In this document: positions 3,759 through 27,082 of the stretch, one piece after another | Layout of the letters: the number at the start of each line of letters is the position of its first letter | Position numbering within the stretch: position 1 is the stretch's first letter | Origin: a virus | Virus record (IMG/VR): IMGVR_UViG_3300007511_000120 | Location: 1-27,082 of that record | Length of the DNA: 27,082 nucleotides | Direction: 5' to 3' (one strand) | Position numbers and translations under genes: made by a program | The notes under the pieces: model-generated | What the model saw: only the letters and a program-made list of their open reading frames with translations | What the model was told of the DNA's origin: nothing | Databases searched by the model: none

Positions 3759-3845
3759 GCCTGGGTGGCGAAACTGGTAGACGCAAAGGACTTAAAATCC
3801 TTCGAGGTAATCCTCATGCCGGTTCGAGTCCGGCCCCAGGCACCA
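3759..3845 (+). tRNA. tRNA-Leu (anticodon UAA)
   Basis: The acceptor stem GCCTGGG (3759-3765) pairs with CCCAGGC (3835-3841), followed by an encoded ACCA end. The D-arm is followed by the anticodon stem AAGGA/TCCTT with loop CTTAAAA, placing TAA at 3793-3795. A long variable arm (CGAGG...CCTC) is the hallmark of a class II leucine tRNA. The T-arm is GCCGG-TTCGAGT-CCGGC. It reads TTA codons, which suits the AT-rich phage genes. Confidence 0.97.
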
Positions 3846-14409: not shown

Positions 14410-14417
14410 TATAAATA
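14410..14417 (+). promoter_or_regulatory. T4-type late promoter for the packaged-protein module
   Basis: TATAAATA exactly matches the T4 late consensus. It lies in the gap between the replication operon and the 14455 gene. The predicted start near 14424 leaves a 30-nt leader with AAGGGA before ATG 14455. It marks the switch from early/middle to late genes. Confidence 0.7.
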
Positions 14418-14454: not shown

Positions 14455-16275
14455 ATGATTAAATCTTTTACAAATTATTCTGAACAAAAATTATTTTTAG
14501 ATGATCTAGTAGAATTTAGTATTCATGAACCAAAATATGGTGTTGGACAACAAGTAGTTGTAAAAACTAATAAACTTGATTCTATATCTGATTATTTGGG
14601 AATTAAGGTTGATGCTTCAACGATATTGACAAAAGCTGCACCAGATCCAAATGCTCCTGAAATATGGGTAGGAACAGGAGAAGGAGAAGAAGTATATCTT
14701 GAAACTGGTGGAAAAACATATCATTTGTTGGGTGCCGCATCTAGCCTTAAATCATATTTTAATGGTTATAAAGATACTCCTGGAATATCATGGAAAGCAG
14801 ATTCAATTGAAACAGGTCAATGTTTAGGGCTGTATATTGATGCAAATGGAATGTTAGAGAAGATAGGTCAGGCTGGGGGAACTCCATCTACAAGTGTTAC
14901 AGATTCAATAAAGAAAAAGATAACCGCTGCATTTCAAAATGGTCAAGATTGGGATATGGGTGGAGTAGGTAAAATTTCTGAAAAGTTAGACAAAATTAGT
15001 TTAGGTGATATGACTCAACTTTTGGGATTAGCCGCAGGAATGCAATTATATTGGGAAAAAATAGGAAAATCTAGAGTTGGTGGTACACCAAATATAATTC
15101 ATGGAAAAATTAAAGAGTATTATACTGCTGAAGAAGGAAATCCTGCAGTTGAAGTACGTGGTTCAAAAGAAAATACTGCAGATACAATTATTTCCAATGT
15201 AAGTGCTTCTGAACTAATTGCAGCAATGAAAGGATCACCAGTTGAATATGATAAGGGTGTTTGTTTTATAAAAGGAACAAAAATTAAATTTCTTCAAGTA
15301 TCATTAAAAAAGGCAAAGGGAGCAGCACAATTAGGTAAAATCACCTCAATGTTACAAACAAAATACAATTTACCAAAATATGAGGTAATGTTGCAAACTT
15401 TATTGGATGAGGGATATTTGGATGAAGGATTCAGAAGTTTTTTTGGTGGCGTTTGGAAAAAGTTATCAGGATTAGTAGATAAAATTAAAGGATGGGTAAA
15501 AGGATTGGGAAAGAAATTATCAAAGAAATTTGATAGAAAAGTTAAAAGTGATTTAGGTCAACTTCAAAGGGTATTTGATAAAATGCCAGGACCGAAAGTT
15601 AATCTAAAAGAAGCATTTGTATTTGATGAACAGGGGTTGATATGTGAAGGATTAAATGTAGAATTACAAAAATTAGATGTTCCTAAATTAAATGTGGTCA
15701 GACAAGGAATTGAGGATAGATTATTTGATTTTGCAAGATCTGCTAGAAATCCAGAATTTACATATAAGAAAACAGGAGGTTTAGGAAAAGGAAATCTACC
15801 AGTAGAAGATAGATATAAATTATTTTCAAATTATACAGGTGTTTATGTTTTTAATGAAGTAATTTCTGCTAATATGGGAAATATGGAAAAATTAAAAGAT
15901 GAAATGATAGCTATGCAGAAAGAAATGTTATTTGGAAAAACAACATTACCCGTATGGAAAGTATATGGTATTGGAGGGGGTGGAGATCCCTGGGAAGAAT
16001 TGGGTGGTGCTAAAGAATTTGAAGAAGGTAAACAAACTGCATTTGCAGGATTAATTGGTGCTATTGTAGGATTTCATGCAAATAGTCAAGGTGGAGATTA
16101 CTATGCACTTGAAAGTTCATTTTTATTTAATGTAGATCCAGAAGGACTTCCCACATATACATTAAATCGTATGGGAACAAATCAAGGAGGATCATCCTTT
16201 TCATTTGTATTTGAGGGATCGACAACTATTTCTAATAAGAAATTTATAGAAAAATATGGTAAGGCTAGTAAATAA
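14455..16275 (+). CDS. large late protein with basic amphipathic segment, candidate internal head protein
   Basis: A 606-residue protein of unknown family. The N-terminus MIKSFTNYSEQK resembles the F-x-x-F/Y-x-E capsid-targeting-like segments of neighbouring gene products. In the middle is a pair of L-D-E/G sites (317-320 and 322-325), then a Lys/Trp/Gly-rich amphipathic stretch (GVWKKLSGLVDKIKG and on, about 331-365), then an L-K-E/A site (384-387). These sites match the (L/I)xE rule of the T4 prohead protease. The N-terminal part is Gly/Thr-rich and beta-prone, and the C-terminal 200 residues look globular. A late promoter precedes it and the next gene overlaps its stop. Packaging is inference. 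Confidence 0.8.
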   Translation: MIKSFTNYSEQKLFLDDLVEFSIHEPKYGVGQQVVVKTNKLDSISDYLGIKVDASTILTKAAPDPNAPEIWVGTGEGEEVYLETGGKTYHLLGAASSLKSYFNGYKDTPGISWKADSIETGQCLGLYIDANGMLEKIGQAGGTPSTSVTDSIKKKITAAFQNGQDWDMGGVGKISEKLDKISLGDMTQLLGLAAGMQLYWEKIGKSRVGGTPNIIHGKIKEYYTAEEGNPAVEVRGSKENTADTIISNVSASELIAAMKGSPVEYDKGVCFIKGTKIKFLQVSLKKAKGAAQLGKITSMLQTKYNLPKYEVMLQTLLDEGYLDEGFRSFFGGVWKKLSGLVDKIKGWVKGLGKKLSKKFDRKVKSDLGQLQRVFDKMPGPKVNLKEAFVFDEQGLICEGLNVELQKLDVPKLNVVRQGIEDRLFDFARSARNPEFTYKKTGGLGKGNLPVEDRYKLFSNYTGVYVFNEVISANMGNMEKLKDEMIAMQKEMLFGKTTLPVWKVYGIGGGGDPWEELGGAKEFEEGKQTAFAGLIGAIVGFHANSQGGDYYALESSFLFNVDPEGLPTYTLNRMGTNQGGSSFSFVFEGSTTISNKKFIEKYGKASK

Positions 16276-17495
16276 TGTTTGCATTCTCTTCATACTTAAC
16301 TGAACAAAAGAATCTCCACATGGAGCATATCGAAGATGAGGTATTGAATGGTGGAGTAAATGGAACAAGAGCAGCAATAAACTTTCTTCAGGGTTTACGT
16401 GATATGCTCGCGGGTAATGCTTCATCCCCTGTAAATGTTACAGTTAAGTGGGACGGAGCCCCTGCAATATTTGCTGGTACTAATCCAGAAAATGGACAGT
16501 TTTTTGTAGGCACAAAAGGTGTATTTGCTAAGAATGCAAAAATAAATTATACTGAAGAAGATATTGATAGAAATCATAGTGGAGGATTAGCCTCTAAACT
16601 AAAAATAGCATTAAAAGAATTGTCTAAAGTAAATATTCAAGGTGTGCTTCAAGGGGATATGATGTATTCTTCAGAAGATATAGAAAAAAAGACAATAGAT
16701 GGTAAAAGTTATTTAACATTTCAACCGAATACTATAGTTTATGCGGTTCCGGAAAAATCTCAATTAGCTGCTAAGATCTTATCTTCTAATATGGGGATAG
16801 TATGGCACACTACTTATACTGGTGATACGATGGAAGATATGGTCGCGTCATTTGGGGTTGCTTCTGGGGCCTTCCGTGAAACTAGTTCAGTTTGGCAAGC
16901 AGATGCATCATTCAAAGATCAGTCTGGTACTGTGACAATGACTAAAGATGAAACTGATGAGATTACAGCAATATTGAGTGAAGCAGGAAAGTTGTTTAGA
17001 AGAATGGATTCTGGAACATTAACTATGATTGCAGAAGATCCAAAAACAGCAGAATTAATAAAAACCTTTAACAATACTAAAGTAAGGGCAGGTGAACCAA
17101 TAAAGAATGTAAAAAAACATACCGCAGAACTGATCGCATTTGTATATGATAGGCTGAAAAATGAGGTAAATAAGGTGAAGAGGGAAGCTTCTAAGAAAAA
17201 TAAACAAGATCAAATGGATAGATATGTTGGGTTTTTAAGGAGTAAGTCTAAGGAATTGGTTAAGATATTTGTCATGCAAAACATTCTTATTAAGGCAAAA
17301 CTTTTGATTCTAAAAAAATTACAAAGTATTAAGGGATTAACTAAGACATTTATAAGAACATCAACCGGATATAGAGTTACGGCACCAGAAGGTTTTGTGG
17401 CTATTGATACTTTAAAGGGGGGAGCAGTTAAGTTGGTAGATCGACTAGAATTTGCACACCAAAATTTCAACGCAGCAAAGAATTGGGATAAATAA
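16275..17495 (+). CDS. ligase-like nucleotidyltransferase-fold protein (DUF6267-type)
   Basis: A 406-residue protein resembling a family common in marine T4-like phages that I recall as DUF6267. VKWDGAPAIF (57-66) holds a K-x-D-G motif (Lys58, Asp60, Gly61) like the adenylated lysine motif of DNA and RNA ligases. A conserved-looking LHMEHIEDEVLNGG lies at 14-27 and a VLQGDMMYSSEDIE segment near 123-136 could match a ligase motif III region. The N-terminus FAFSSYLTE/Q (2-11) resembles a capsid-targeting sequence with an L-x-E cleavage site. A Lys-rich helical part lies around 285-325. Real ligase activity is unproven. Confidence 0.82.
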   Translation: MFAFSSYLTEQKNLHMEHIEDEVLNGGVNGTRAAINFLQGLRDMLAGNASSPVNVTVKWDGAPAIFAGTNPENGQFFVGTKGVFAKNAKINYTEEDIDRNHSGGLASKLKIALKELSKVNIQGVLQGDMMYSSEDIEKKTIDGKSYLTFQPNTIVYAVPEKSQLAAKILSSNMGIVWHTTYTGDTMEDMVASFGVASGAFRETSSVWQADASFKDQSGTVTMTKDETDEITAILSEAGKLFRRMDSGTLTMIAEDPKTAELIKTFNNTKVRAGEPIKNVKKHTAELIAFVYDRLKNEVNKVKREASKKNKQDQMDRYVGFLRSKSKELVKIFVMQNILIKAKLLILKKLQSIKGLTKTFIRTSTGYRVTAPEGFVAIDTLKGGAVKLVDRLEFAHQNFNAAKNWDK

Positions 17496-17533
17496 AAAAC
17501 ATTTTATATTGATATGATTCAAGAAAGGTTATT

Positions 17534-17764
17534 ATGAAATATGGGAAATATGATAGATTTCATTTAGAAGAATTGATTCAAAAAGTGTGGAGTTTGTCGG
17601 AAGATTTAGATACATTACTTTGGAAAATGTATGATGATCCAATTCCACCTACTGAAGATGAGATGTGTAATTCAATCATAGGATTATCAGAATTACATAA
17701 TATACGCTGTAGAAGATTATGGGAATGTTTTGAAGAATTAGTACACGAAGGAAATATTATATGA
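17534..17764 (+). CDS. small acidic helical protein, unknown function
   Basis: A 76-residue protein behind AGAAAGG, mostly helical and acidic, with two cysteines (CNSIIG and CRRLWEC regions). A GATAAATA box at 17487-17494 could be a weak late promoter, but it coincides with the preceding stop codon. Not recognised. Confidence 0.7.
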   Translation: MKYGKYDRFHLEELIQKVWSLSEDLDTLLWKMYDDPIPPTEDEMCNSIIGLSELHNIRCRRLWECFEELVHEGNII

Positions 17765-17788
17765 AACATTCAAAGAGTTTTCTGAAAA

Positions 17789-18580
17789 ATGAAAACTTTT
17801 AAACAACATATATCTGAAGCTCAAGCACTTTTTAAGACTGATAGCATGATATTTACCAACTTAGAAAGTCCAGCATTAATTCTTTCTCCATCTATGATAG
17901 AAAGAGTATTTGATCAAGAACGAATTGAGGCATGGCACGTTACAGATATAAATGGATTAAAAGGACTTCAACGAATAGAAGGTAAGAAATCATCTATATC
18001 AGTATTGACCGAAATAGAATCAGGTAAGATTAAGATATTTTCTATGGGAGTAGAAACGGATGGTGGTTATTGTGTTAAACTTGAAGGGAATTTACTTTTG
18101 TCCTCAGATATTGATGTATATTCAGAAAGATTAGAGGGGGGCCGAAGAGCTATTGCAGTCAGCGCTCAAGATTATCCTAGCTTATATAAAGACATGATGA
18201 AGATGATAAAAAGTATGTGGGATAAATTTGGGTTTGAACAATATACGGGTGATGAATATGTAACTGCTATGGATTTTAATAAATGGGGAATGGCACTTAA
18301 AGGAAAACAAAAAGCTCAGTTTATTAAAGAATATATTGATAATTCTGAAATTATATTAAAGAAGAACAAAAAGGCAAGAGAAGAATTGAGAAAAATGGGT
18401 AGACATAAATTTTCAACGTATAATGAAAGTGTAGTTAATCAAATTAAGATAAAAACTATATACGTAATTAATAATAATACGATAGAAAAATTTGGATCAC
18501 AGTATCAGGCCGCAAGAAAGTTATTTAAGAATGTTCTTGAAGTAACATCAAATCGTATGGGGGAGATCATAAGTAAATGA
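17789..18580 (+). CDS. candidate packaged internal protein with ADP-ribosyltransferase-like features
   Basis: A 263-residue protein starting MKTFKQHISEA, which matches the T4 internal-protein capsid-targeting sequence MKTYQEFIAEA at 7 of 11 positions, including the I-x-E/A cleavage site after residue 10. After this tag comes AWHVTDINGLKGLQRIEGKK (about 48-67) and SISVLT. The H-x-T then I-x-G then S-x-S/T pattern recalls the PARP/KptA/ART fold, where a His or Arg is followed by an S/T strand. No clear catalytic Glu is assigned. The C-terminal third is Lys-rich and helical. T4 packages an ART (Alt) in its head, which makes the idea attractive but unproven. Confidence 0.8.
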   Translation: MKTFKQHISEAQALFKTDSMIFTNLESPALILSPSMIERVFDQERIEAWHVTDINGLKGLQRIEGKKSSISVLTEIESGKIKIFSMGVETDGGYCVKLEGNLLLSSDIDVYSERLEGGRRAIAVSAQDYPSLYKDMMKMIKSMWDKFGFEQYTGDEYVTAMDFNKWGMALKGKQKAQFIKEYIDNSEIILKKNKKAREELRKMGRHKFSTYNESVVNQIKIKTIYVINNNTIEKFGSQYQAARKLFKNVLEVTSNRMGEIISK

Positions 18581-19620
18581 AAACAGTAGCATTTGTATTC
18601 GGAAGATTTAATCCACCAACAATAGGTCACGGGAAGTTATTAGATGCGTTAAAAGCAACTGCCCAAAGAGAGAGGGCAGATTATTATATATTTACTAGTC
18701 ATTCTCAAGATGCAAAGAAGAATCCTTTATCTAAGAATACTATTTTTCGATTTATGTCAAAAATGTTTCCTCAATTTAGGAAAGCGTTTAAACACGAATA
18801 TAAAGGTGAAATAAGGAATGTTTTTGATATTGCTAATAATTTTCATGGAGAATATGATAAACTTATCATGGTTGTAGGTAGCGATAGAGTTTCAGACTTT
18901 GAGCGTATACTAAATAAGTATAATGGAATAAAGGCTCAACACGGATTTTATGATTTTAAAGAAATTCAAGTAGTTAGTGCTGGTGATCGTGATCCAGATG
19001 CAGAAGGTGTAACTGGAATGTCAGCCTCTAAAATGAGGGCAGCAGCAGTCAAAGGAGACTTTGATTCTTTTAAATTGGGAGTTCCAGCAATTATGAGTGA
19101 TAAAGACACAAAGGATATGATGAATGCAGTAAGATTAGGTTTAAAATTGGATGCTATAAGAGAAGGTATGAAACGTAGAAGAGGAATACAGGAACCCGTT
19201 GTAATTGAAGATAATTCAAGAACAATAGAACCAACAGAATTAACATGGCAAGGATATGAAACAATAAGTTTATCTACTTGTGCTGAAGCCTTTGATTTAT
19301 TTGATGAGATTGTTAATAGTATTGGATTTTCTACTTTTACTACACCAGAACAAGCATACCTCAAAGAATCATTGATTCTAGTTGATAAGTGTCTTACAAT
19401 TGCTAATTCACCTAAAGAAATCATAGAAGAAAAAGATGTTCAAGATTATTTAAAATTTTCACAGAAAGCAATAAAATTACTAGAGTCTGTTGGAAAACGA
19501 ATAGGAATTCCATTTGATTATTCGTTTTTGAATAAACTTCAAGTTGAGGTTATTGAAGAAGAAATTAAACCAAAGAAATCTTTCACACAATTTATTGGAG
19601 AAGTACATGGCAACCGATAA
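18577..19620 (+). CDS. cytidylyltransferase-fold nucleotidyltransferase with targeting-like tail
   Basis: A 347-residue protein. The N-terminal domain (1-190) is a cytidylyltransferase-like enzyme: FGRFNPPTIGHGKLL (8-22) holds the T/H-x-G-H active-site motif, VVGSDRVSDFE (99-109) fits the GxD region, and MSASKMRAA (148-156) is the ISxTxxR-type nucleotide-binding loop. Such enzymes make NAD, coenzyme A or CDP-lipid intermediates; NMN adenylyltransferase is the nearest guess. The C-terminal domain (about 210-325) is helical and unknown. The last residues KSFTQFIGEVHGNR contain a capsid-targeting-like F-x-x-F-I-x-E segment. It has an ATGA start and overlaps the next gene by 14 nt. Confidence 0.9.
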   Translation: MKTVAFVFGRFNPPTIGHGKLLDALKATAQRERADYYIFTSHSQDAKKNPLSKNTIFRFMSKMFPQFRKAFKHEYKGEIRNVFDIANNFHGEYDKLIMVVGSDRVSDFERILNKYNGIKAQHGFYDFKEIQVVSAGDRDPDAEGVTGMSASKMRAAAVKGDFDSFKLGVPAIMSDKDTKDMMNAVRLGLKLDAIREGMKRRRGIQEPVVIEDNSRTIEPTELTWQGYETISLSTCAEAFDLFDEIVNSIGFSTFTTPEQAYLKESLILVDKCLTIANSPKEIIEEKDVQDYLKFSQKAIKLLESVGKRIGIPFDYSFLNKLQVEVIEEEIKPKKSFTQFIGEVHGNR

Positions 19621-21988
19621 TTTACTAAGCGTAATCGCCAGTCTTGTCAAGAGAGAAGGTCGGATTGCTAAAGAGGAATCCAAAAAGGCGAAGGACGCAG
19701 TAAAGGCAGCAAAAGAGGCTGAAGAAGAGGACGAAGATGAAGATCCTGTAGGTGATGGTGAATCTGATGCAAAGGCAGCAGAAAAAGAACCAGCACCAAA
19801 ACCAGATGATGAGGAAGAACCAGAAGACGATAAAACAGGTGAAGGTGATACTAAACCTACTGGTCCTGATCCTGCATTAGTAGCACAAGTTGCTAGAATC
19901 GTCAAACAAGAAATTGAAGACGAAAAGAAAGAAAAGAAGGAAAAGGAAATTAAAATTTCTGGTAAAAAAGAAAAAATTGACACTAAACCAACAATAAAAC
20001 AAGAGGATAAAATGAAAGGTCGAATGACATTTAAAGAAGCAATTGCGGCTTCCATATTAGGAACTGATAAGATATATGAAGGATATGAAGGAGCAGTACT
20101 TAACATTCTTGATACAGCAGGCATTAGAGGGCCGTTGGGTTATGAACCATTCTTTGAAAATGGTAAACTTTATGTTGAAAGAGGATCAGAAAAAGAAGCA
20201 AAACAAGCTCTTAAAGACGATGGTTCTATCAGAAGAATACCTAAAATTGTTGGTGAAGAATTGGCACCAGAAGAATATCTTCAAATGGAAGCAGTTTCAG
20301 TTGATGGTAGATTAAAAGGTTTCAAAGAAGCACTCAAGAGATTGACTTATGAAAAAATTAAGGCAATGAAAGAGAAGGAAGAAGTTGAGATTGATGAAAC
20401 TATTGAAGTTCCGGAGGGATTGAGTAAAGAAGATGCAGCAGCATTTATGGCAGCAGCATCTGCGGCCAAAAGAGCCGGTAAAAAGAAATTTAAACTTGGT
20501 GGAAAAGAATATCCTGTTACTATCAAGGTAAATATTCCTTCAAAAAAAAATGAAGATTTAACTACCGAGGAAATTGCGGTAGATGAAGCAAGGAAAACTG
20601 CAAAAGATATTGGAATGGAATGTCAAGAATGTGGTAAGAAATTTCGTGCTAAACTTTCTACATTACAATATGGAAAGACCAAATGTCCAAAATGTAAGAG
20701 TACAGATATAGATTTTTCATATGGTGAATCGGTTGAGGTCGAAGAAGCACGATCAAAAGAAGATGAGTTGGAATTAGCAAAAGTGATTGCAGCGTGGAAG
20801 AAAGCAGGAGGAAAAATTAAAAAATTACCACCTGGCAGAAAGTTCCAAAGTTTGTTTGGAAAAGGATATAAACCTAAGAAACAACCACGCCAAGCAGAAG
20901 AAGTTGAGATCCAAGAACATTGTGGAGAATGTGAATTTGGATTAGAAGAAAGAGCAAAATATGATCTTTATCACAAGACATTTTCTGCAGCAATGCAACA
21001 TGCATATGATGTGGCCAAGAAACAGGGTTATATTGTAGATCCAGATGAAATCGACAATAAGGTTGCAACAGGACCAAGAAAACCATCAAGTGGTAAGACT
21101 AACCGATACATTTTGGGAACAGATAAGAAGAAAAATCTTCATGTCCAAGTTGCAAACTTAGATAACAAACGATACGAACTCAATATGTACATTGAGGGAG
21201 TTGAGATTGACGAGAAGTTCAAAAAAGGTAAGTATACACTTAGAGATGGAAACACCGGTAAGGTGATTGCAACATATAATTCTGGTGCACAAGCTGCAAA
21301 AGAAATGCATAAACTTTTGGATAGTGGTAAATATGATGAATTAGAAGTAAAAATGGAAGAAGTTGAACCCATCGAAGAGGCAGACCGAAAAGCATTAAAG
21401 AATTTTTCTAAAGAACTTTCTGATTATGCAAGAAAGAGTGGTGGAATCGATAAAGCAGATTTTGAGAAGGTTGCAAAGATTGCAGATTCTGGTAAAATGC
21501 CAAAGAAGAATGATATTCCAGATGATACAGATCCAAGAGATTTTGTATTAATGATGATGATGAAATATTTTGAAAAGAGAGAATTGAAAATGTATAAAGG
21601 ATTATCACCAACATTCGATTCTTGGTTAAATGAGTCTGTTCAAATGACAAAAGTGAGAAGGCTTAGAACTAAGATAAATGAAGCATTAGATAGAGAAGCA
21701 GTCCGTGAATTACAATTATATATTGAAAATGATTCAGACTTATACAGAAGACAGATAATACCAATAGTTAAAAACATTCAAAGAAAAATGAAGTCTGGTA
21801 AGTATGACCATACAAAAGCACCTAAACTTTGGATGTATTTAGTAGATAACGGTGCAAAGAAATATGTGAAAGAATTTGGTGGGGATGTGAAGTCCATGTT
21901 CCCTAAAGATGTTCGACATTCAGTTGCAGTTAATATGGCAAATGAATACCGTGCAGAAATAGAATCTCAAGGTGGAGAAATGTACTAA
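19607..21988 (+). CDS. candidate prohead-processed polyprotein with zinc ribbon
   Basis: A 793-residue late protein from ATG 19607 with TTGGAG upstream; a reading from 19544 lies inside the previous gene. The first 135 residues are acidic Lys/Glu/Ala low complexity. Next come MKGRMTFKEAIAASIL (136 on), a zinc ribbon C-x2-C...C-x2-C (Cys339, Cys342, Cys360, Cys363), a domain starting KYDLYHKTF (about 451-530), a short beta domain after KGKYTLRDGNTGK, and a helical C-terminal domain (693-793). Domains are separated by recurring linkers of the form E-E-V-E-I-x-E. Each linker ends in an (I/L/V)xE site like those cut by T4 gp21, for example 262-264, 435-437, 534-536, 589-591 and 690-692. Confidence 0.85.
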   Translation: MATDNLLSVIASLVKREGRIAKEESKKAKDAVKAAKEAEEEDEDEDPVGDGESDAKAAEKEPAPKPDDEEEPEDDKTGEGDTKPTGPDPALVAQVARIVKQEIEDEKKEKKEKEIKISGKKEKIDTKPTIKQEDKMKGRMTFKEAIAASILGTDKIYEGYEGAVLNILDTAGIRGPLGYEPFFENGKLYVERGSEKEAKQALKDDGSIRRIPKIVGEELAPEEYLQMEAVSVDGRLKGFKEALKRLTYEKIKAMKEKEEVEIDETIEVPEGLSKEDAAAFMAAASAAKRAGKKKFKLGGKEYPVTIKVNIPSKKNEDLTTEEIAVDEARKTAKDIGMECQECGKKFRAKLSTLQYGKTKCPKCKSTDIDFSYGESVEVEEARSKEDELELAKVIAAWKKAGGKIKKLPPGRKFQSLFGKGYKPKKQPRQAEEVEIQEHCGECEFGLEERAKYDLYHKTFSAAMQHAYDVAKKQGYIVDPDEIDNKVATGPRKPSSGKTNRYILGTDKKKNLHVQVANLDNKRYELNMYIEGVEIDEKFKKGKYTLRDGNTGKVIATYNSGAQAAKEMHKLLDSGKYDELEVKMEEVEPIEEADRKALKNFSKELSDYARKSGGIDKADFEKVAKIADSGKMPKKNDIPDDTDPRDFVLMMMMKYFEKRELKMYKGLSPTFDSWLNESVQMTKVRRLRTKINEALDREAVRELQLYIENDSDLYRRQIIPIVKNIQRKMKSGKYDHTKAPKLWMYLVDNGAKKYVKEFGGDVKSMFPKDVRHSVAVNMANEYRAEIESQGGEMY
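20003..20014 (+). other. internal in-frame ribosome binding site and ATG
   Basis: GAGG at 20003-20006 lies 5 nt before ATG 20012, in frame with the 793-residue protein (residue 136, MKGRMTFKEA). Translation from here would give a form without the acidic low-complexity head. It may also be a relic of a separate gene. Confidence 0.4.
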
Positions 21989-22251
21989 TGGAAAAAAATA
22001 TGGATTTATTCGGTGGAAGATCAGAAGCCGAAAGAATGAAAAATGTGGCAAACGCAATTTATGATGTTGTTAATCCTAAACAAGAAGAACCAGAAAATTC
22101 TGAAGTTCAGGTGGAAACAGCAGAAACTGAACCAGTTGAACCTGAAACAAATCCTGTTGTTGATTTAGTAGGAAAAGCTATATCTTTTCATAAACCAAGG
22201 GGTATCTTTATGCATACGGTGGGCAATAATGGAAGACCAGAATCAGAATGA
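21988..22251 (+). CDS. small acidic protein, unknown function
   Basis: An 87-residue protein with a TAATG start on the stop of the polyprotein gene. The middle is a Glu/Pro/Thr/Val low-complexity linker (about 30-58), between a helical head (MDLFGGRSEAERMKNV) and a short tail. It overlaps the next gene by 23 nt. Not recognised. Confidence 0.7.
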   Translation: MEKNMDLFGGRSEAERMKNVANAIYDVVNPKQEEPENSEVQVETAETEPVEPETNPVVDLVGKAISFHKPRGIFMHTVGNNGRPESE

Positions 22252-22438
22252 ATCGGAAAGCACTTTAGAAGTTGTTGAAGAAAGATTGAAAATGATTGAT
22301 AGTTTAATACAAAAGTTTTCAGGATTTCCAGATGTTCAACAATCTTTAAAAGAAGCAAGGGAATCGCTTTTAGAAAGTGAGGAAGAAATTATGAATTATT
22401 ATGATCTTACAGATTTAGCGAAAACTAAATTAAACTAA
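22229..22438 (+). CDS. small coiled-coil protein, unknown function
   Basis: A 69-residue acidic protein that is almost entirely helical, with heptad-like Leu/Ile/Val spacing over about residues 13-53. It may be a small structural or chaperone-like head component, given its late position. Not recognised. Confidence 0.65.
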   Translation: MEDQNQNESESTLEVVEERLKMIDSLIQKFSGFPDVQQSLKEARESLLESEEEIMNYYDLTDLAKTKLN

Positions 22439-22484
22439 ATATAGCATAATGATAACATTTTTAAATTTTTAATAGGAGAACACA

Positions 22485-23102
22485 ATGCCTTTATGGGGAA
22501 CAGCTCATGCCTCAGCAACTAATAAGCCCAAGTGGTTGCCAACGGATGAGGATTCAGATTATACCAAACAAGATTCATACGCAACTAATAATGGTTGGGT
22601 AATGAAAGCTGGTACAAAAGGACAGGGCAACGATAATACTGATGCAGATCCTGAAGTTCTAGTTGCAATAGGAGGGCTTGCGGGAACAGATGCATCTACT
22701 GGACTTAGAACTGCAACTGTTACAGCAATGAGATTTATTGTAGGAACAACTGATAATACAGATTTAACTGCTAATGATGCAAATGCAGAAATCCAAGTTG
22801 AAATTACATGGGATGAAGCTGTTACAGTAACAGGATCACCTCAAATTACTATTGCTAATAATGATGCTTCGGGTGGTGGATATACTGCACCATTACTTAC
22901 ATATACGGCAACTGGCTCAACTGCAAATAGAAAACGATTTATTAAAACAAGTTGTGGTATAGGTAATACTGATGTTCTGACATTAGGTGGAACAAACATT
23001 GCACTTAATGGTGGAACAATTAAAGATACCGCTTCTGGAACTGTTGATTCTTCATTAGTATTGACAGGATTATCAGCTGTTGTAAGAACAGTATCATCGT
23101 AA
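22485..23102 (+). CDS. virion structural protein with Ig-like domain
   Basis: A 205-residue protein behind AATAGGAG. The N-terminal part (MPLWGTAHASATNKPKWLP) and Gly/Asp/Thr-rich region to about 65 resemble marine T4-like virion proteins that I recall. The rest is beta-rich. The segment VEITWDEAVTVTGSPQITI (about 105-123) matches a bacterial Ig/SwmB-type repeat. There are almost no predicted helices. A decoration or fibre-associated role on the capsid or tail is likely but cannot be fixed. Confidence 0.8.
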   Translation: MPLWGTAHASATNKPKWLPTDEDSDYTKQDSYATNNGWVMKAGTKGQGNDNTDADPEVLVAIGGLAGTDASTGLRTATVTAMRFIVGTTDNTDLTANDANAEIQVEITWDEAVTVTGSPQITIANNDASGGGYTAPLLTYTATGSTANRKRFIKTSCGIGNTDVLTLGGTNIALNGGTIKDTASGTVDSSLVLTGLSAVVRTVSS

Positions 23103-23127
23103 TAATTAATAATATTTGGAGAATATA

Positions 23128-23484
23128 ATGGCTGACTTAGGTAAAATGTCTAAGAAGCAACTTGAAACCTATGCCAGAGAAGAGTTGGGTATTGAGTTAG
23201 ATCGAAGGCATACTAAAAAACAGTTAATTTCAACTGTTGAAAAACATTTAAAGGCGAAGAAGTCTCAACCTAAAGTTGTAAAAGTTGTAGAACCGCCTCC
23301 GGCACCTAAAAAGTCGGAGGCAAAGCCTTCTGAAGTTAGAAAAATTATACAAGAATTGTCTCTTCTTAGAAGAGATGCGTCCATAGTTTGGGATGAAATC
23401 AAAGATGATACACGTTCCGATGAGGATATAAGAGAACTTTGTCGTGCCAAAGGTTTTGGTACTTTAGTACAAAATATCTCTTAA
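23128..23484 (+). CDS. SAP/LEM-like domain protein
   Basis: A 118-residue protein from ATG 23128 behind TTGGAG. MSKKQLETYAREELGIELDRR and the following TKKQLISTVEKHL (7-43) have the helix-extended-helix pattern of SAP, HeH or Rho-N domains, which often bind DNA or RNA. A Lys/Pro-rich linker (44-70, PKVVKVVEPPPAPKK) leads to a second helical domain (71-118) rich in Arg and Asp. It lies among late virion-type genes, so it may touch DNA in the head. Confidence 0.8.
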   Translation: MADLGKMSKKQLETYAREELGIELDRRHTKKQLISTVEKHLKAKKSQPKVVKVVEPPPAPKKSEAKPSEVRKIIQELSLLRRDASIVWDEIKDDTRSDEDIRELCRAKGFGTLVQNIS

Positions 23485-23500
23485 TTTATTTTTTATAGTT

Positions 23501-23581
23501 GCGTCTATAGCATTCCCTTTCGTTAGATACGGAGCTATAGCGCATTTTACTTAACGGTGACGAGTCCCGTCACATAGCCGT
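23501..23581 (+). promoter_or_regulatory. structured 5' leader of the 23593 gene
   Basis: The gap holds two strong hairpins and no ORF. GCG-t-CTATAGC (23501-23511) pairs with GCTATAGCGC (23534-23543), giving 10 bp with one bulge, and TCC/GGA continues inside the loop. ACGG TGACG (23554-23562) pairs with CGTCAC (23568-23573) and, across a 4-nt bulge, with CCGT (23578-23581). The ribosome binding site TAGGAG follows directly. The segment is GC-richer than its flanks. Confidence 0.55.
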
Positions 23582-23592
23582 AGGAGATAAAC

Positions 23593-24054
23593 ATGGCTGA
23601 TAAGAAAATTACCGCACTTAATGCGTCAACCGCATTAAGCACAGATGACCTGTTTCACGTTGTCGATGATCCTAGTGGAAGTCCCACAAATAAAAAAGTA
23701 ACAGCAGCCAATGTCTTTAACAAGATTCCTGGTTGGGTTGGTTTTGCTGATACACCTCAAGCATTGACTGCAGCGGGTGCAGTAAGTATTACTACTACAA
23801 TTACAACTGTTGCCTCAAGTGCAGCGATTGCTCTTACATTAGCAAATGGAACTCAAGGACAAATTAAAGTCATTTGTTTCATTACTGATGGTGGAGATGC
23901 TACACTTACACCAGCAACTATGAGTAATGGTACTACCCTTACTTTTGCTGATGCCGGAGATGCTGCAATTCTAATGTGGATTGGAGCTGCAGGATGGCAC
24001 GTTGTAGGTGCCTGGGGTCCTGGAACACCTGGTGCTGGTCCAACTATTGCATAA
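23593..24054 (+). CDS. virion structural protein, beta-rich
   Basis: A 153-residue protein behind GGAGATAA. The opening ITALNASTALSTDDLFHVVDDPSG with NKKVTAANVF (5-43) is a recurring N-terminal module in phage tail-fibre and structural proteins. The C-terminal part is Thr/Ala/Gly-rich beta sequence (about 50-150), ending in a Gly/Pro tail. A structured leader precedes it and a strong terminator follows, pointing to a highly expressed late virion protein. Confidence 0.85.
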   Translation: MADKKITALNASTALSTDDLFHVVDDPSGSPTNKKVTAANVFNKIPGWVGFADTPQALTAAGAVSITTTITTVASSAAIALTLANGTQGQIKVICFITDGGDATLTPATMSNGTTLTFADAGDAAILMWIGAAGWHVVGAWGPGTPGAGPTIA

Positions 24055-24070
24055 TAGTTGACAGTTTTAG

Positions 24071-24099
24071 GGGGAGAAGTCAACCTTCTCCCCTTTTTT
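24071..24099 (+). terminator. intrinsic terminator
   Basis: GGGGAGAAG (24071-24079) pairs perfectly with CTTCTCCCC (24085-24093) around loop TCAAC, followed by six T. It ends the transcript of the 23593 gene. Confidence 0.95.
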
Positions 24100-24121
24100 A
24101 TTATTTTAATTGGAGTATATT

Positions 24122-24364
24122 ATGAGTAAAACGATTTCTTCTGAAGAACTACGTGCAGAACGTAGTAAATTAGAAACTGACAGAGCAGTATTGAATGAAA
24201 GATTACAAGCACTTAATGCGGATCGTGAAACAACTATAGCAAGATTGTCAATGGTTGCAGGAGCCTTACAAACAATTGAAGGTTTCATAGATAGAATTGA
24301 TCCAGAAGTTCATCCAGAAGATGAAATTGATATGTCTTCAAAGGCAGATCAAAATGAGGTTTGA
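24122..24364 (+). CDS. small coiled-coil protein, unknown function
   Basis: An 80-residue protein from ATG 24122 behind TTGGAG. Residues 6-55 form a long Arg/Glu/Leu-rich helix with coiled-coil spacing, and the tail is acidic. It overlaps the next gene by 11 nt. Not recognised beyond its fold. Confidence 0.75.
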   Translation: MSKTISSEELRAERSKLETDRAVLNERLQALNADRETTIARLSMVAGALQTIEGFIDRIDPEVHPEDEIDMSSKADQNEV

Positions 24365-24752
24365 TGATCTTAATGAGGGCAATTTCCTTCTATATGCAAT
24401 GAAAGAATATAGTAATGTTCAATGTACTGATGTTGAAGAATTTTACGATGATTTGAAAAAAATCAAATATATTAAAAGGCTTTTTAACATATATGTCAAA
24501 GATGGTCAATTAAAAGAAAGATTGATCTTAAATCATTTGATCATTTTTTATAATGTATTTTCTGTAGAAGCTGGAACGCGTATATTATTTTACAAAATTG
24601 AAAAAGAGTTTTGGCCAATATTAAAAACCTTTTTAATTTATTTGGATAGAATGCCTGACAAAATAGATCCGGTTTTGGGTGAACAAATATTATCAACTAA
24701 TATTCCATTAGAAGATAAAGTAATATCAAGATTACGAAAAATAAAGGTGTAA
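24354..24752 (+). CDS. conserved T4-like marine phage protein
   Basis: A 132-residue protein from ATG 24354; the reading from 24297 lies inside the previous gene. The start MRFDDLNEGNFLLYAMKEY and the later EEFYDDLKKIKYIKRLF (about 27-43), with a LILNHLIIFYNVF segment (about 57-69), match a protein that I recall as widespread in T4-like cyanomyophages and linked to the head/neck gene cluster. It is all-helical. The function is unknown. Confidence 0.85.
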   Translation: MRFDDLNEGNFLLYAMKEYSNVQCTDVEEFYDDLKKIKYIKRLFNIYVKDGQLKERLILNHLIIFYNVFSVEAGTRILFYKIEKEFWPILKTFLIYLDRMPDKIDPVLGEQILSTNIPLEDKVISRLRKIKV

Positions 24753-27082
24753 ATGGCAGAATTAAAAGAAGGTATGGTTACGGGAGCAATGAACTTATAT
24801 TTCATTTATAAGTTTTTGCGAATATTAACTACTCCTTGGGAAAAGACAGAAGCCTTTGAATTGGGTATCATTGATGATAATGGGAACATTCTCAAGAAGA
24901 AGAAATCCTTAAAGTCCATCAAGGAGAAAGAAGCATATACCATGATGCACCGTTTAGTATGGAAACTTAAAAGGTTGATGGAGAAAGTTCCTTTTGGAAA
25001 GACTAGATTAGCATCATACGCTGCCGCACTATGGTTGATTAAAGAAGGACATTCTTTTAAAGGAGATGACAAACAACTACAAGAATCTGTATTAGATTTC
25101 ATAGAATCTGATTGGGAAAACGAAGCCCGTATACTTAAAGAAAAATATGAAGGTGATCTCAGTAAGAAAACTTATAATGAATTTTTTACATTAGGGGTGT
25201 CCAAACCCACTAAACAAGATATTCAACGATATTTGGATCAATTGGGAAATGCAGTAAGATTAGTGTCAAATAAAGATATAATAAAAAATATCAAAAACCA
25301 CTTCAAAACTATTAAAAGTTTAAAATTAACTAGTAATGGAAGACAAGTATTAGCATTTGAGGAATTTGAAGATGTTGAAGAGGTGGCACCGCCAGGTTGG
25401 GAAGGAACTGTTAAAGCAATGAAGAAAAATAAGAAAATCAACAATCCATATGCTTTAGCATGGTGGATGAAAAATAAAGGAATGAAACCTCATATTCCAG
25501 AACAAGATGAACTTGAAGCAATGCTAGAAGAAATGGACCCAACAGATCATGTATCTAAAAATGATGAAACTGGAATGTGGTGTGTATATAATAAAAATGG
25601 TGATAAAGTGCAAGAATTCGATTCAGAGGAAGAAGCAAATAAATGGGCTATAGATAATCACGATGAATTGATGGAACAGGCAAATACATCTCATGTATAT
25701 GTAGGCATAAGAAGTTGGGATAAAACTTCTAATCTCCGCCCTAGCATTCGATATGGATCAGGAAAAACAAAAGACTTGATACTAATCAAACCAATAGAAA
25801 GTGATTTCTTCAATGAGAACCTAAAACAGTATATTAATTCACCTTATGATTTTCTAGAAGAACTCAGACTACATATAAATTTTCAGATATTGATAAAAGA
25901 TAAAGGTGCTGAAAAGAAAATGGTAGATGCTATTGTAAAAAGAAAGCCGTATCTGGTTTTAGGTTATAATGGAGATAGTGTTTATGCAGTAGATAAAAAT
26001 GAAAATAAACTTAAACAAACATTACAAAAATATAAAGTTGATGAAGTGGTAGAAGATACAAAAATGGTTAAACAAGGAGAAAATAAAATGATAAAATTTT
26101 CTGATTTTCTAACAGAAGGTAGACCAAAATTAGATCCTGATTATGTTCCATCTTATACTACTACGGATAAACAGAGGGCCACTCTCGTCGCTGCCCAACA
26201 GCAAAAATATACTTTAAGAGATATTGAGGCACTTGCTCGTAAATATAAAGTAAAACTCGATGGCACACCAGCAGGTGGTAAAGATTGGGATTGGGATTGG
26301 CAAATAGCAGTTAGGGGTGGTATAGTTTTAGGATACGAATATAGATCTAATTCTATGTCTGTATCTGGATGGAAATGGGATAACAAAAAAGTAAAAAAAT
26401 ATATTGACAAGTGGGAGCCAGAGCATTCAACTCCAAGAGATATGAAACCGATGGGAGGTAAAATACTTTTACGTGGATTTGAAACTGCCTTTGATTTAAT
26501 TGGTCTTGGAGAAGACTTTGTTTCTATTGGTGATGTATTAGATCAAGTAGTATTAGAGGCTGAACTCCAAGATCTTGCAGAAGAAATTCAAAAGTTAGAA
26601 GAGCGAAGACAATCATATTCAAATTTCATTCCTTTTCCACAAAAAGTTTTAACTGATTTTGCAAAACGCGCAAAGAAATCAGGAATGTCATTTGATCAAT
26701 ATGAGAAGTTTGTAAAAGGAACTTTCAAGGATGGAGCAGATTCCCGAAATGCAATTATCTTTGGTAGAGAAATTTTTAAAGATAAAGAAGATGGTAGGAA
26801 AAAATTCTCTGGAGCACAAGCAAAGAAAGACAATGAAGCCAGACGTGCTGCACAGAGAAAGAGATTGGGTCTTGAAGAAGTTGAGATTGAAGAAAATGTT
26901 ATTCTTGCTGAAGAAGTTTCAGTAAAAGACTATAATTCTCTAAAAAAGGGTGATATTATTACAATAGATTTTAAATCTGCTATGTCAACTGGTAAATCAA
27001 CATTTAGAGTAACTCCTAAAAATATAGTTGGTAAACCAAAAGTAGGAAAAGTTACATTACAAAATATCAAAAACCCTAAAGG
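24753..27082 (+). CDS. very long late protein, runs off the window (fused internal-protein genes?)
   Basis: A single open frame of at least 776 residues from ATG 24753, one base after the previous stop, with no stop before the window end. Residues 1-200 are helical and basic. GWEGTVKAMKKNKKI (215-229), followed by NPYALAWWMKNKG, is a small repeat-type domain that I recall from other marine phage proteins. At residue 446 a new segment begins, MIKFSDFLTEG, a capsid-targeting-like sequence with an L-T-E/G site and its own ribosome binding site. Later (I/L)xE sites include I712-E-E and L718-A-E within another E-E-V-E-I-E-E linker. It looks like two internal-protein genes joined in frame. Confidence 0.85.
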   Translation, partial: MAELKEGMVTGAMNLYFIYKFLRILTTPWEKTEAFELGIIDDNGNILKKKKSLKSIKEKEAYTMMHRLVWKLKRLMEKVPFGKTRLASYAAALWLIKEGHSFKGDDKQLQESVLDFIESDWENEARILKEKYEGDLSKKTYNEFFTLGVSKPTKQDIQRYLDQLGNAVRLVSNKDIIKNIKNHFKTIKSLKLTSNGRQVLAFEEFEDVEEVAPPGWEGTVKAMKKNKKINNPYALAWWMKNKGMKPHIPEQDELEAMLEEMDPTDHVSKNDETGMWCVYNKNGDKVQEFDSEEEANKWAIDNHDELMEQANTSHVYVGIRSWDKTSNLRPSIRYGSGKTKDLILIKPIESDFFNENLKQYINSPYDFLEELRLHINFQILIKDKGAEKKMVDAIVKRKPYLVLGYNGDSVYAVDKNENKLKQTLQKYKVDEVVEDTKMVKQGENKMIKFSDFLTEGRPKLDPDYVPSYTTTDKQRATLVAAQQQKYTLRDIEALARKYKVKLDGTPAGGKDWDWDWQIAVRGGIVLGYEYRSNSMSVSGWKWDNKKVKKYIDKWEPEHSTPRDMKPMGGKILLRGFETAFDLIGLGEDFVSIGDVLDQVVLEAELQDLAEEIQKLEERRQSYSNFIPFPQKVLTDFAKRAKKSGMSFDQYEKFVKGTFKDGADSRNAIIFGREIFKDKEDGRKKFSGAQAKKDNEARRAAQRKRLGLEEVEIEENVILAEEVSVKDYNSLKKGDIITIDFKSAMSTGKSTFRVTPKNIVGKPKVGKVTLQNIKNPK
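26076..26090 (+). other. internal ribosome binding site and ATG of a nested reading
   Basis: GGAG at 26076-26079 lies 8 nt before ATG 26088, in frame (residue 446) with the long gene. It starts MIKFSDFLTEG, the position where a capsid-targeting tag would be functional. It could produce a separate shorter protein or be the retained start of a fused gene. Confidence 0.55.

What the first reader, a model, noticed from the sequence alone, without database searches (positions are those of the whole stretch)
14455..27082. A late module of candidate capsid-packaged, ejected proteins marked by T4-like targeting sequences
The 17789 product starts MKTFKQHISEA, very close to the T4 internal-protein tag MKTYQEFIAEA. 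Related segments occur at FAFSSYLTEQ (16275 product), KSFTQFIGEV (C-terminus of the 18577 product), KFSDFLTEG (inside the 24753 product) and SFTNYSEQ (14455 product). In T4 this tag directs proteins into the prohead and is removed by protease gp21 at (L/I)xE. The module follows a late promoter and includes enzymes unlike structural proteins. The inference is an arsenal of enzymes injected into the host with the DNA.
Basis: partly seen in the sequence, partly recalled or inferred. Interest (0 to 1): 0.88.

Follow-up and report, generated by a model that had tools for sequence, protein, structure and literature searches.

The report
Capsid-tagged injected enzyme module, marine T4-like phage
This marine virus of bacteria puts a short T4-style "pack me into the head" address on a run of unrelated enzymes, and related viruses are already known to carry one of these enzymes in their particles, so it probably delivers a ready-made enzyme kit into the host together with its DNA.

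Summary
Two window proteins (16275, 17789) carry the T4 capsid-targeting signature in exact register (F4, Y/H7, I/L8, E10). A third copy, "inside" the 24753 ORF, follows its own Shine-Dalgarno and ATG (26088). The 14455 tag and the C-terminal 18577 tag are variants: their relatives keep the targeting aromatics but lack (I/L)xE.

In 148 related loci, 94 of 1740 non-redundant proteins from 29 unrelated families carry the strict tag, against 1.4 expected; internal methionines show 3 of 6389. Packaging has experimental support in relatives: the tagged nucleotidyltransferase (NMNAT) was found by mass spectrometry in S-SM1 and S-SCSM1 virions. gp21 is absent from this fragment but present in every complete relative tested.

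I add three inferences. DUF6267 (16275) looks like an RNA-ligase-type nucleotidyltransferase. The 17789 product resembles ADP-ribosyltransferases (weak match). The 19607 and 24753 products are mosaics of domains whose order varies between phages, joined by EEVE(I/L)xE linkers that fit gp21 cleavage sites, suggesting cleavable cargo polyproteins.

Not shown: actual cleavage, location inside the head, and ejection.

The parts
14410..14417 (+). TATAAATA octamer (T4-type late promoter candidate) in the gap before the module
   Evidence: 5 in window vs 4.0 expected, so weak.
14455..16275 (+). 606-aa protein with variant tag MIKSFTNYSEQ; homologues MKTFINFSEN; the more distant positional homologue L003:2124 has a full tag (LDFRDYLIEE)
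16275..17495 (+). DUF6267 protein with tag MFAFSSYLTEQ; predicted RNA-ligase-like covalent nucleotidyltransferase (KxDG, EGxV, K)
   Evidence: Pfam; tag conservation; motifs; fold.
17789..18580 (+). 263-aa protein with tag MKTFKQHISEA; family often repeated in tandem in relatives; weak ADP-ribosyltransferase-fold match
18577..19620 (+). Cytidylyltransferase/NMNAT-like nucleotidyltransferase; tag-like KSFTQFIGEV at the C-terminus instead of the N-terminus
   Evidence: relatives in S-SM1 and S-SCSM1 carry N-terminal tags and are virion proteins.
19576..19605 (+). C-terminal tag-like KSFTQFIGEV; GGAG 19597-19600 within it is also the Shine-Dalgarno of ATG 19607
19607..21988 (+). 793-aa mosaic (polyprotein-like) product with five EEVE(I/V/P)xE-type linkers at nt 20378-20398, 20726-20746, 20897-20917, 21194-21214, 21356-21379
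24753..27082 (+). 776-aa mosaic ORF, cut by the contig end; N-terminal domain is a separate protein in Melnitz and HTVC008M; linker EEVEIEE at 26874-26894
26075..26117 (+). Shine-Dalgarno AGGAG (26075-26079) and in-frame ATG 26088 starting MIKFSDFLTEG: tagged gene start fused in frame to the upstream ORF

Best explanation
The block after the gp41 helicase is a capsid-cargo module. Short N-terminal capsid-targeting sequences of the T4 type (aromatics at positions 4 and 7 for docking on the scaffold core, I/L8-x-E10 for cutting) recruit unrelated enzymes into the prohead. The phage's gp21 protease then removes the tag, and the enzymes leave the head with the DNA at infection. The cargo is skewed to nucleotide and RNA-end chemistry: an NMNAT/cytidylyltransferase, a DUF6267 ligase-like enzyme and an ADP-ribosyltransferase-like family in the window; in relatives also a CCA/poly(A)-polymerase-type enzyme, a zeta-like kinase, a NT5C-type nucleotidase and a RimK ligase. 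I infer a pre-loaded RNA-repair and NAD/ADP-ribose kit that acts before the first phage transcripts. The two large products are fusions of such cargo, probably cut by the same protease at (I/L)xE linkers. Shown here: the tag, its enrichment and its constraint pattern. Shown by others: virion presence of tagged NMNATs. Inferred: head location, cleavage, ejection and cargo function.
For: Tag enrichment of 94/1740 vs 1.4 expected, in 29 unrelated families; N-terminal versus internal Met, 94/1740 vs 3/6389; still 42 vs 1.1 with the two query families removed. In 23 members of the 17789 family position 4 is F 23/23, 7 is Y/H/F 23/23, 8 is L/I 23/23 and 10 is E 22/23, while 6 and 9 drift; these are the T4 determinants (PMC9026906). 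DUF6267 tags keep the pattern in most phages of the window's branch. S-SM1 T4-GC190 starts MKKFSAFLNEA and was detected in virions (PMC3037559). S-SCSM1 NMNAT starts MKSFLQFLKEA and was detected in CsCl-purified virions (PMC9602691); four neighbours are also annotated as virion proteins. gp21 in Melnitz, HTVC008M, S-SM1 and four contigs and in the close relative G009. gp23 of these phages has matching candidate sites: FLSE|A, FLGE|I, ILTE|T, FMTE|A.
Against: No peptide evidence that any tag is cut. Virion mass spectrometry does not place proteins inside the head or show ejection, and the S-SCSM1 authors allow for carry-over. Many homologues lack the tag (DUF6267 17 of 49 and cytidylyltransferase 8 of 42 tagged by the strict pattern), so targeting is not universal. 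HTVC008M has the module but no strict tag. The window's own gp21 is beyond the contig. Enzyme assignments rest on motifs and weak fold matches.
Confidence: 0.77

Rival explanations
1. The tagged proteins are packaged but are scaffold or core fillers consumed during head assembly, like gp67/gp68, and are not delivered effectors.
For: T4 core proteins are cut by gp21 and mostly lost from the head; the long acidic mosaics resemble core proteins.
Against: The bodies are conserved enzymes with invariant active-site-type motifs, and tagged NMNATs persist in mature virions (PMC3037559, PMC9602691).
Confidence: 0.12
2. The segments are a chance or low-information pattern: short hydrophobic-aromatic N-termini common in AT-rich phage genes.
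For: The motif is short, and two of the five cited copies are poor.
Against: More than 60-fold enrichment over shuffles and about 115-fold over internal methionines; constraint at exactly positions 4, 7, 8 and 10.
Confidence: 0.03
3. The mosaic products are injected whole as polyvalent proteins; the EEVE(I/L)xE linkers are flexible spacers, not cut sites.
For: Polyvalent multidomain phage proteins are predicted to be injected (PMC5512222); no cleavage data exist.
Against: The linkers keep (I/L)xE; at one homologous junction a full tag (window FSDFLTE|GRP, L108 FSKFITE|GRP) and a minimal site (L106/L094 VDITE|GRP) replace each other.
Confidence: 0.45
4. The proteins are virion-associated on the tail or outside of the head and the tag serves another docking site.
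For: Published proteomes do not resolve position in the virion.
Against: The tag equals the T4 prohead-core signal residue by residue; gp23 of the same phages carries the same kind of site.
Confidence: 0.08

Closest known systems
T4 internal proteins IPI/IPII/IPIII and Alt with their capsid targeting sequences, processed by gp21
   Same: 10-residue N-terminal tag in the same register, gp21-type protease in relatives, unrelated bodies sharing one tag, cargo including an ADP-ribosyltransferase-type enzyme (Alt in T4; 17789 family here, weakly).
   Different: Larger and more varied cargo, in a contiguous block after the helicase gene; enzymes of nucleotide/RNA chemistry; a tag variant at a C-terminus; fused mosaic products.
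NMNAT/cytidylyltransferase virion proteins of cyanophages (S-SM1 T4-GC190, S-SCSM1 ORF91)
   Same: Same family as the 18577 product; N-terminal tag found here in S-SM1, S-SCSM1 and seven other cyanophages.
   Different: No packaging signal is mentioned in the passages of these papers that I read; in the window the tag-like segment is at the C-terminus.
Polyvalent proteins (Iyer et al. 2017, PMC5512222)
   Same: Multidomain proteins of shuffled domains predicted to be injected with DNA.
   Different: No embedded peptidase was found; small domains joined by uniform linkers that fit the head protease gp21.
phiKZ/SPN3US ejected head proteins with propeptides cut at xxE
   Same: Inner-head proteins processed by a gp21-type protease.
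   Different: Their propeptides are mostly long (over 100 residues), not a 10-residue T4-type tag.

Membership tests
T4-type capsid targeting sequence (CTS) proteins | N-terminal ~10-residue tag with determinants at residues 4, 7 (targeting) and 8, 10 (processing) | tested here: met
   16275, 17789 and the 26088 start in exact register; 23-member family constraint. 14455 and the C-terminal 18577 segment meet it only in part.
T4-type capsid targeting sequence (CTS) proteins | Same tag on unrelated bodies | tested here: met
   29 unrelated body families.
T4-type capsid targeting sequence (CTS) proteins | gp21-type prohead protease encoded by the phage | tested here: inconclusive
   Not in the 27-kb fragment, but present in nine related or reference genomes including G009.
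T4-type capsid targeting sequence (CTS) proteins | Protein present in the purified virion | not testable with these tools
   For relatives, published mass spectrometry shows it: S-SM1 (PMC3037559), S-SCSM1 (PMC9602691).
T4-type capsid targeting sequence (CTS) proteins | Tag removed after E10 and body ejected into the host | not testable with these tools
   Needs N-terminal peptides and an ejection assay.
Covalent nucleotidyltransferase (RNA/DNA ligase) superfamily, for DUF6267 | Motif I KxDG, motif IV EGxV, motif V lysine invariant | tested here: met
   K58, D60, G61, E372, G373, V375, K386 invariant in 27 sequences.
Covalent nucleotidyltransferase (RNA/DNA ligase) superfamily, for DUF6267 | Ligase fold | tested here: inconclusive
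   Best second-look hits are almost all RNA ligases (6vt3 Z 7.5, 176 aligned, 3.9 A; T4 Rnl1 6.7), but Z is below 8, Foldseek E is above 0.1 and a PDB sequence-profile search found nothing.
ADP-ribosyltransferase (ART) fold, for the 17789 product | ART fold | tested here: inconclusive
   Nine of the top ten second-look hits are ART-fold (DarT Z 5.1, 119 aligned, 4.3 A; CteC 4.8; Tpt1 4.5; TreTu 4.0); Z is low and Foldseek gives no significant match.
Polyvalent proteins | Several disparate domains in one polypeptide with domain shuffling | tested here: met
   Permuted domain order between phages.

The most novel reading that the evidence does not exclude
Marine T4-like phages build cleavable cargo polyproteins: tagged genes fuse in frame, the tag decays to a bare (I/L)xE site, and the head protease gp21 cuts the fusion inside the prohead into many small injected proteins, alongside a pre-loaded RNA-repair and NAD/ADP-ribose kit.
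Probability: 0.42. Interest if true: 0.88.

Novelty: new variant of a known kind. Interest (0 to 1): 0.74.

Why it matters
A packaging address that can be read from sequence turns many unnamed marine phage genes into testable injected effectors. It gives a mechanism for the repeated, unexplained finding of NMNATs in cyanophage virions, names a likely enzyme class for DUF6267 (matched in 466 phage records), and predicts exact cut sites that existing virion proteomes could confirm.

Tried and rejected
Near-identity DNA search of the module against deposited phages found nothing, as did the 14455 protein. PDB sequence-profile search with DUF6267 gave no relative. Foldseek alone gave no significant hit for either model; only the second-look aligner grouped ligases and ART folds. 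The own-genome search for gp21 is uninformative because the record is just the window. I rejected the late-promoter statement as evidence. I rejected the reading of the 26088 tag as purely internal because of its Shine-Dalgarno. I rejected counting SFTNYSEQ as a full tag. A search of the held paper library found no description of capsid targeting sequences in marine T4-like phages and none of DUF6267; that library lacks most subscription journals.
Full report
What the window is. The record is a 27,082-bp viral contig and the window is all of it. It carries gp43, UvsX and the gp41 helicase and then the block in question. Its relatives are T4-like marine phages: Methylophilales phage Melnitz, Pelagibacter phage HTVC008M and cyanophages. 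The same block follows the helicase in Melnitz, HTVC008M and S-SM1.

The tags. T4 IPII/IPIII begin MKTYQEFIAEA. In T4, residues 4 and 7 direct packaging, and residues 8 and 10 direct processing by gp21, which cuts after (L/I)xE (PMC9026906). The 16275 product (MFAFSSYLTEQ) and the 17789 product (MKTFKQHISEA) match in exact register. The segment in the 24753 ORF is MIKFSDFLTEG at ATG 26088, with AGGAG at 26075-26079. It is a tagged gene start joined in frame to the ORF upstream. The C-terminal KSFTQFIGEV of the 18577 product is the only strict C-terminal case in the whole set; homologues read FTQFSGE or FTKFSGE. The 14455 segment is a variant whose close homologues read MKTFINFSEN. A more distant homologue in the same gene position, L003:2124, has a full tag.

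Is it more than chance? I collected 148 loci mainly through homology of the bodies, not of the tags. Among 1740 non-redundant proteins 94 carry the strict pattern at a start codon, against 1.4 in shuffles (maximum 5), in 29 unrelated body families. Internal methionines show it 3 times in 6389. With the two query families removed the count, on a smaller set, is 42 of 1355 against 1.1. Within the 17789 family, positions 4, 7, 8 and 10 are fixed in type while 6 and 9 drift. DUF6267 N-termini keep the pattern across phages whose tags otherwise differ. The locus L002 shows a run of six tagged genes.

Protease and cut sites. gp21-type protease genes are found in Melnitz, HTVC008M, S-SM1, T4 and four contigs, and in G009, a 134.5-kb contig that carries a close copy of this module. 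The gp23 N-termini of these phages hold FLSE|A, FLGE|I, ILTE|T and FMTE|A. These sites are assigned by position, not measured.

Are they in the virion? For the window phage this cannot be tested. In S-SM1, T4-GC190 was detected in purified virions (PMC3037559). The GenBank record shows that T4-GC190 is the nucleotidyltransferase beginning MKKFSAFLNEA. In S-SCSM1 the NMNAT was detected in CsCl-purified virions, and the authors note the same for two other Synechococcus phages (PMC9602691). It begins MKSFLQFLKEA, and seven more cyanophages carry such a tag on this protein; P-HM2 does not. In the S-SCSM1 record four neighbouring products are also labelled virion proteins. One of them, gp280, holds an EEVELDE linker and shares a module with the mosaic proteins found here. 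Mass spectrometry does not show that the proteins are inside the head or are ejected.

The cargo. DUF6267 has invariant KxDG, EGxV and a late lysine, the motifs of ligases and capping enzymes (my knowledge of that superfamily). Its model (pLDDT 80) is matched best by RNA ligases, with Z up to 7.5 over 176 residues; Foldseek alone is not significant. The 17789 model (pLDDT 79) is matched best by ADP-ribosyltransferase-fold enzymes, with Z only 4 to 5. The 18577 product is a cytidylyltransferase/NMNAT-type enzyme. Tagged proteins of relatives include a poly(A)/CCA-polymerase-type enzyme, a zeta-like kinase, a NT5C-type nucleotidase and a RimK ligase. An RNA-repair and NAD/ADP-ribose kit is my inference; head-packaged ARTs and Nudix enzymes have been proposed for other phages (PMC9503650).

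The mosaics. The 19607 product and the 24753 ORF consist of small domains whose order changes between phages. They are joined by E[EDSAG][VT]E[ILV]xE: 31 copies in 17 proteins against 0.1 in shuffles. Ends of homologous blocks lie within 12 residues of such a site, or of a tag, in 35% of cases against 12% at random; the blocks are not independent. At one junction the window reads FSDFLTE|GRP, L108 reads FSKFITE|GRP without a start codon, and L106/L094 reads VDITE|GRP. I read this as free tagged gene, fused tag, bare cut site. No cleavage data exist.

Verdict. The system is a known kind; its size, its cargo and the probable cleavable fusions are new as far as I could check.

Noticed in passing
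L081:82-1131 (Melnitz MZ577097): A RimK-like ATP-grasp protein starts MTQKFSQFITEE, a full capsid tag; a RimK-type ligase may be injected.
   Followed up: partly
window 16275-17495: Pfam DUF6267, matched in 466 phage records, looks like an RNA-ligase-type nucleotidyltransferase.
   Followed up: partly
window 19597-19609: The Shine-Dalgarno GGAG of the 19607 gene lies inside the codons of the C-terminal tag-like segment of the 18577 gene.
   Followed up: no
L092, L093, L108, L142: Members of the 17789 family stand close together, two to three per phage, most with their own tag.
   Followed up: partly
L161:21627-21836 (S-SCSM1 gp279): A 69-aa virion protein ends in KKRTFKEFLEYIE, a possible C-terminal tag like that of the window's 18577 product.
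   Followed up: no
L132:18562-19275, L120:16541-17216: Two adjacent proteins resembling A-type iron-sulphur carriers (GGGCSGFTY, GGCSGWKY) follow the tagged genes.
   Followed up: no
L013:15909-18158: Tagged protein joining a cytidylyltransferase domain and a zeta-toxin-like kinase in one 749-aa chain.
   Followed up: no
window 3759-3845: tRNA-Leu (taa) gene.
   Followed up: no
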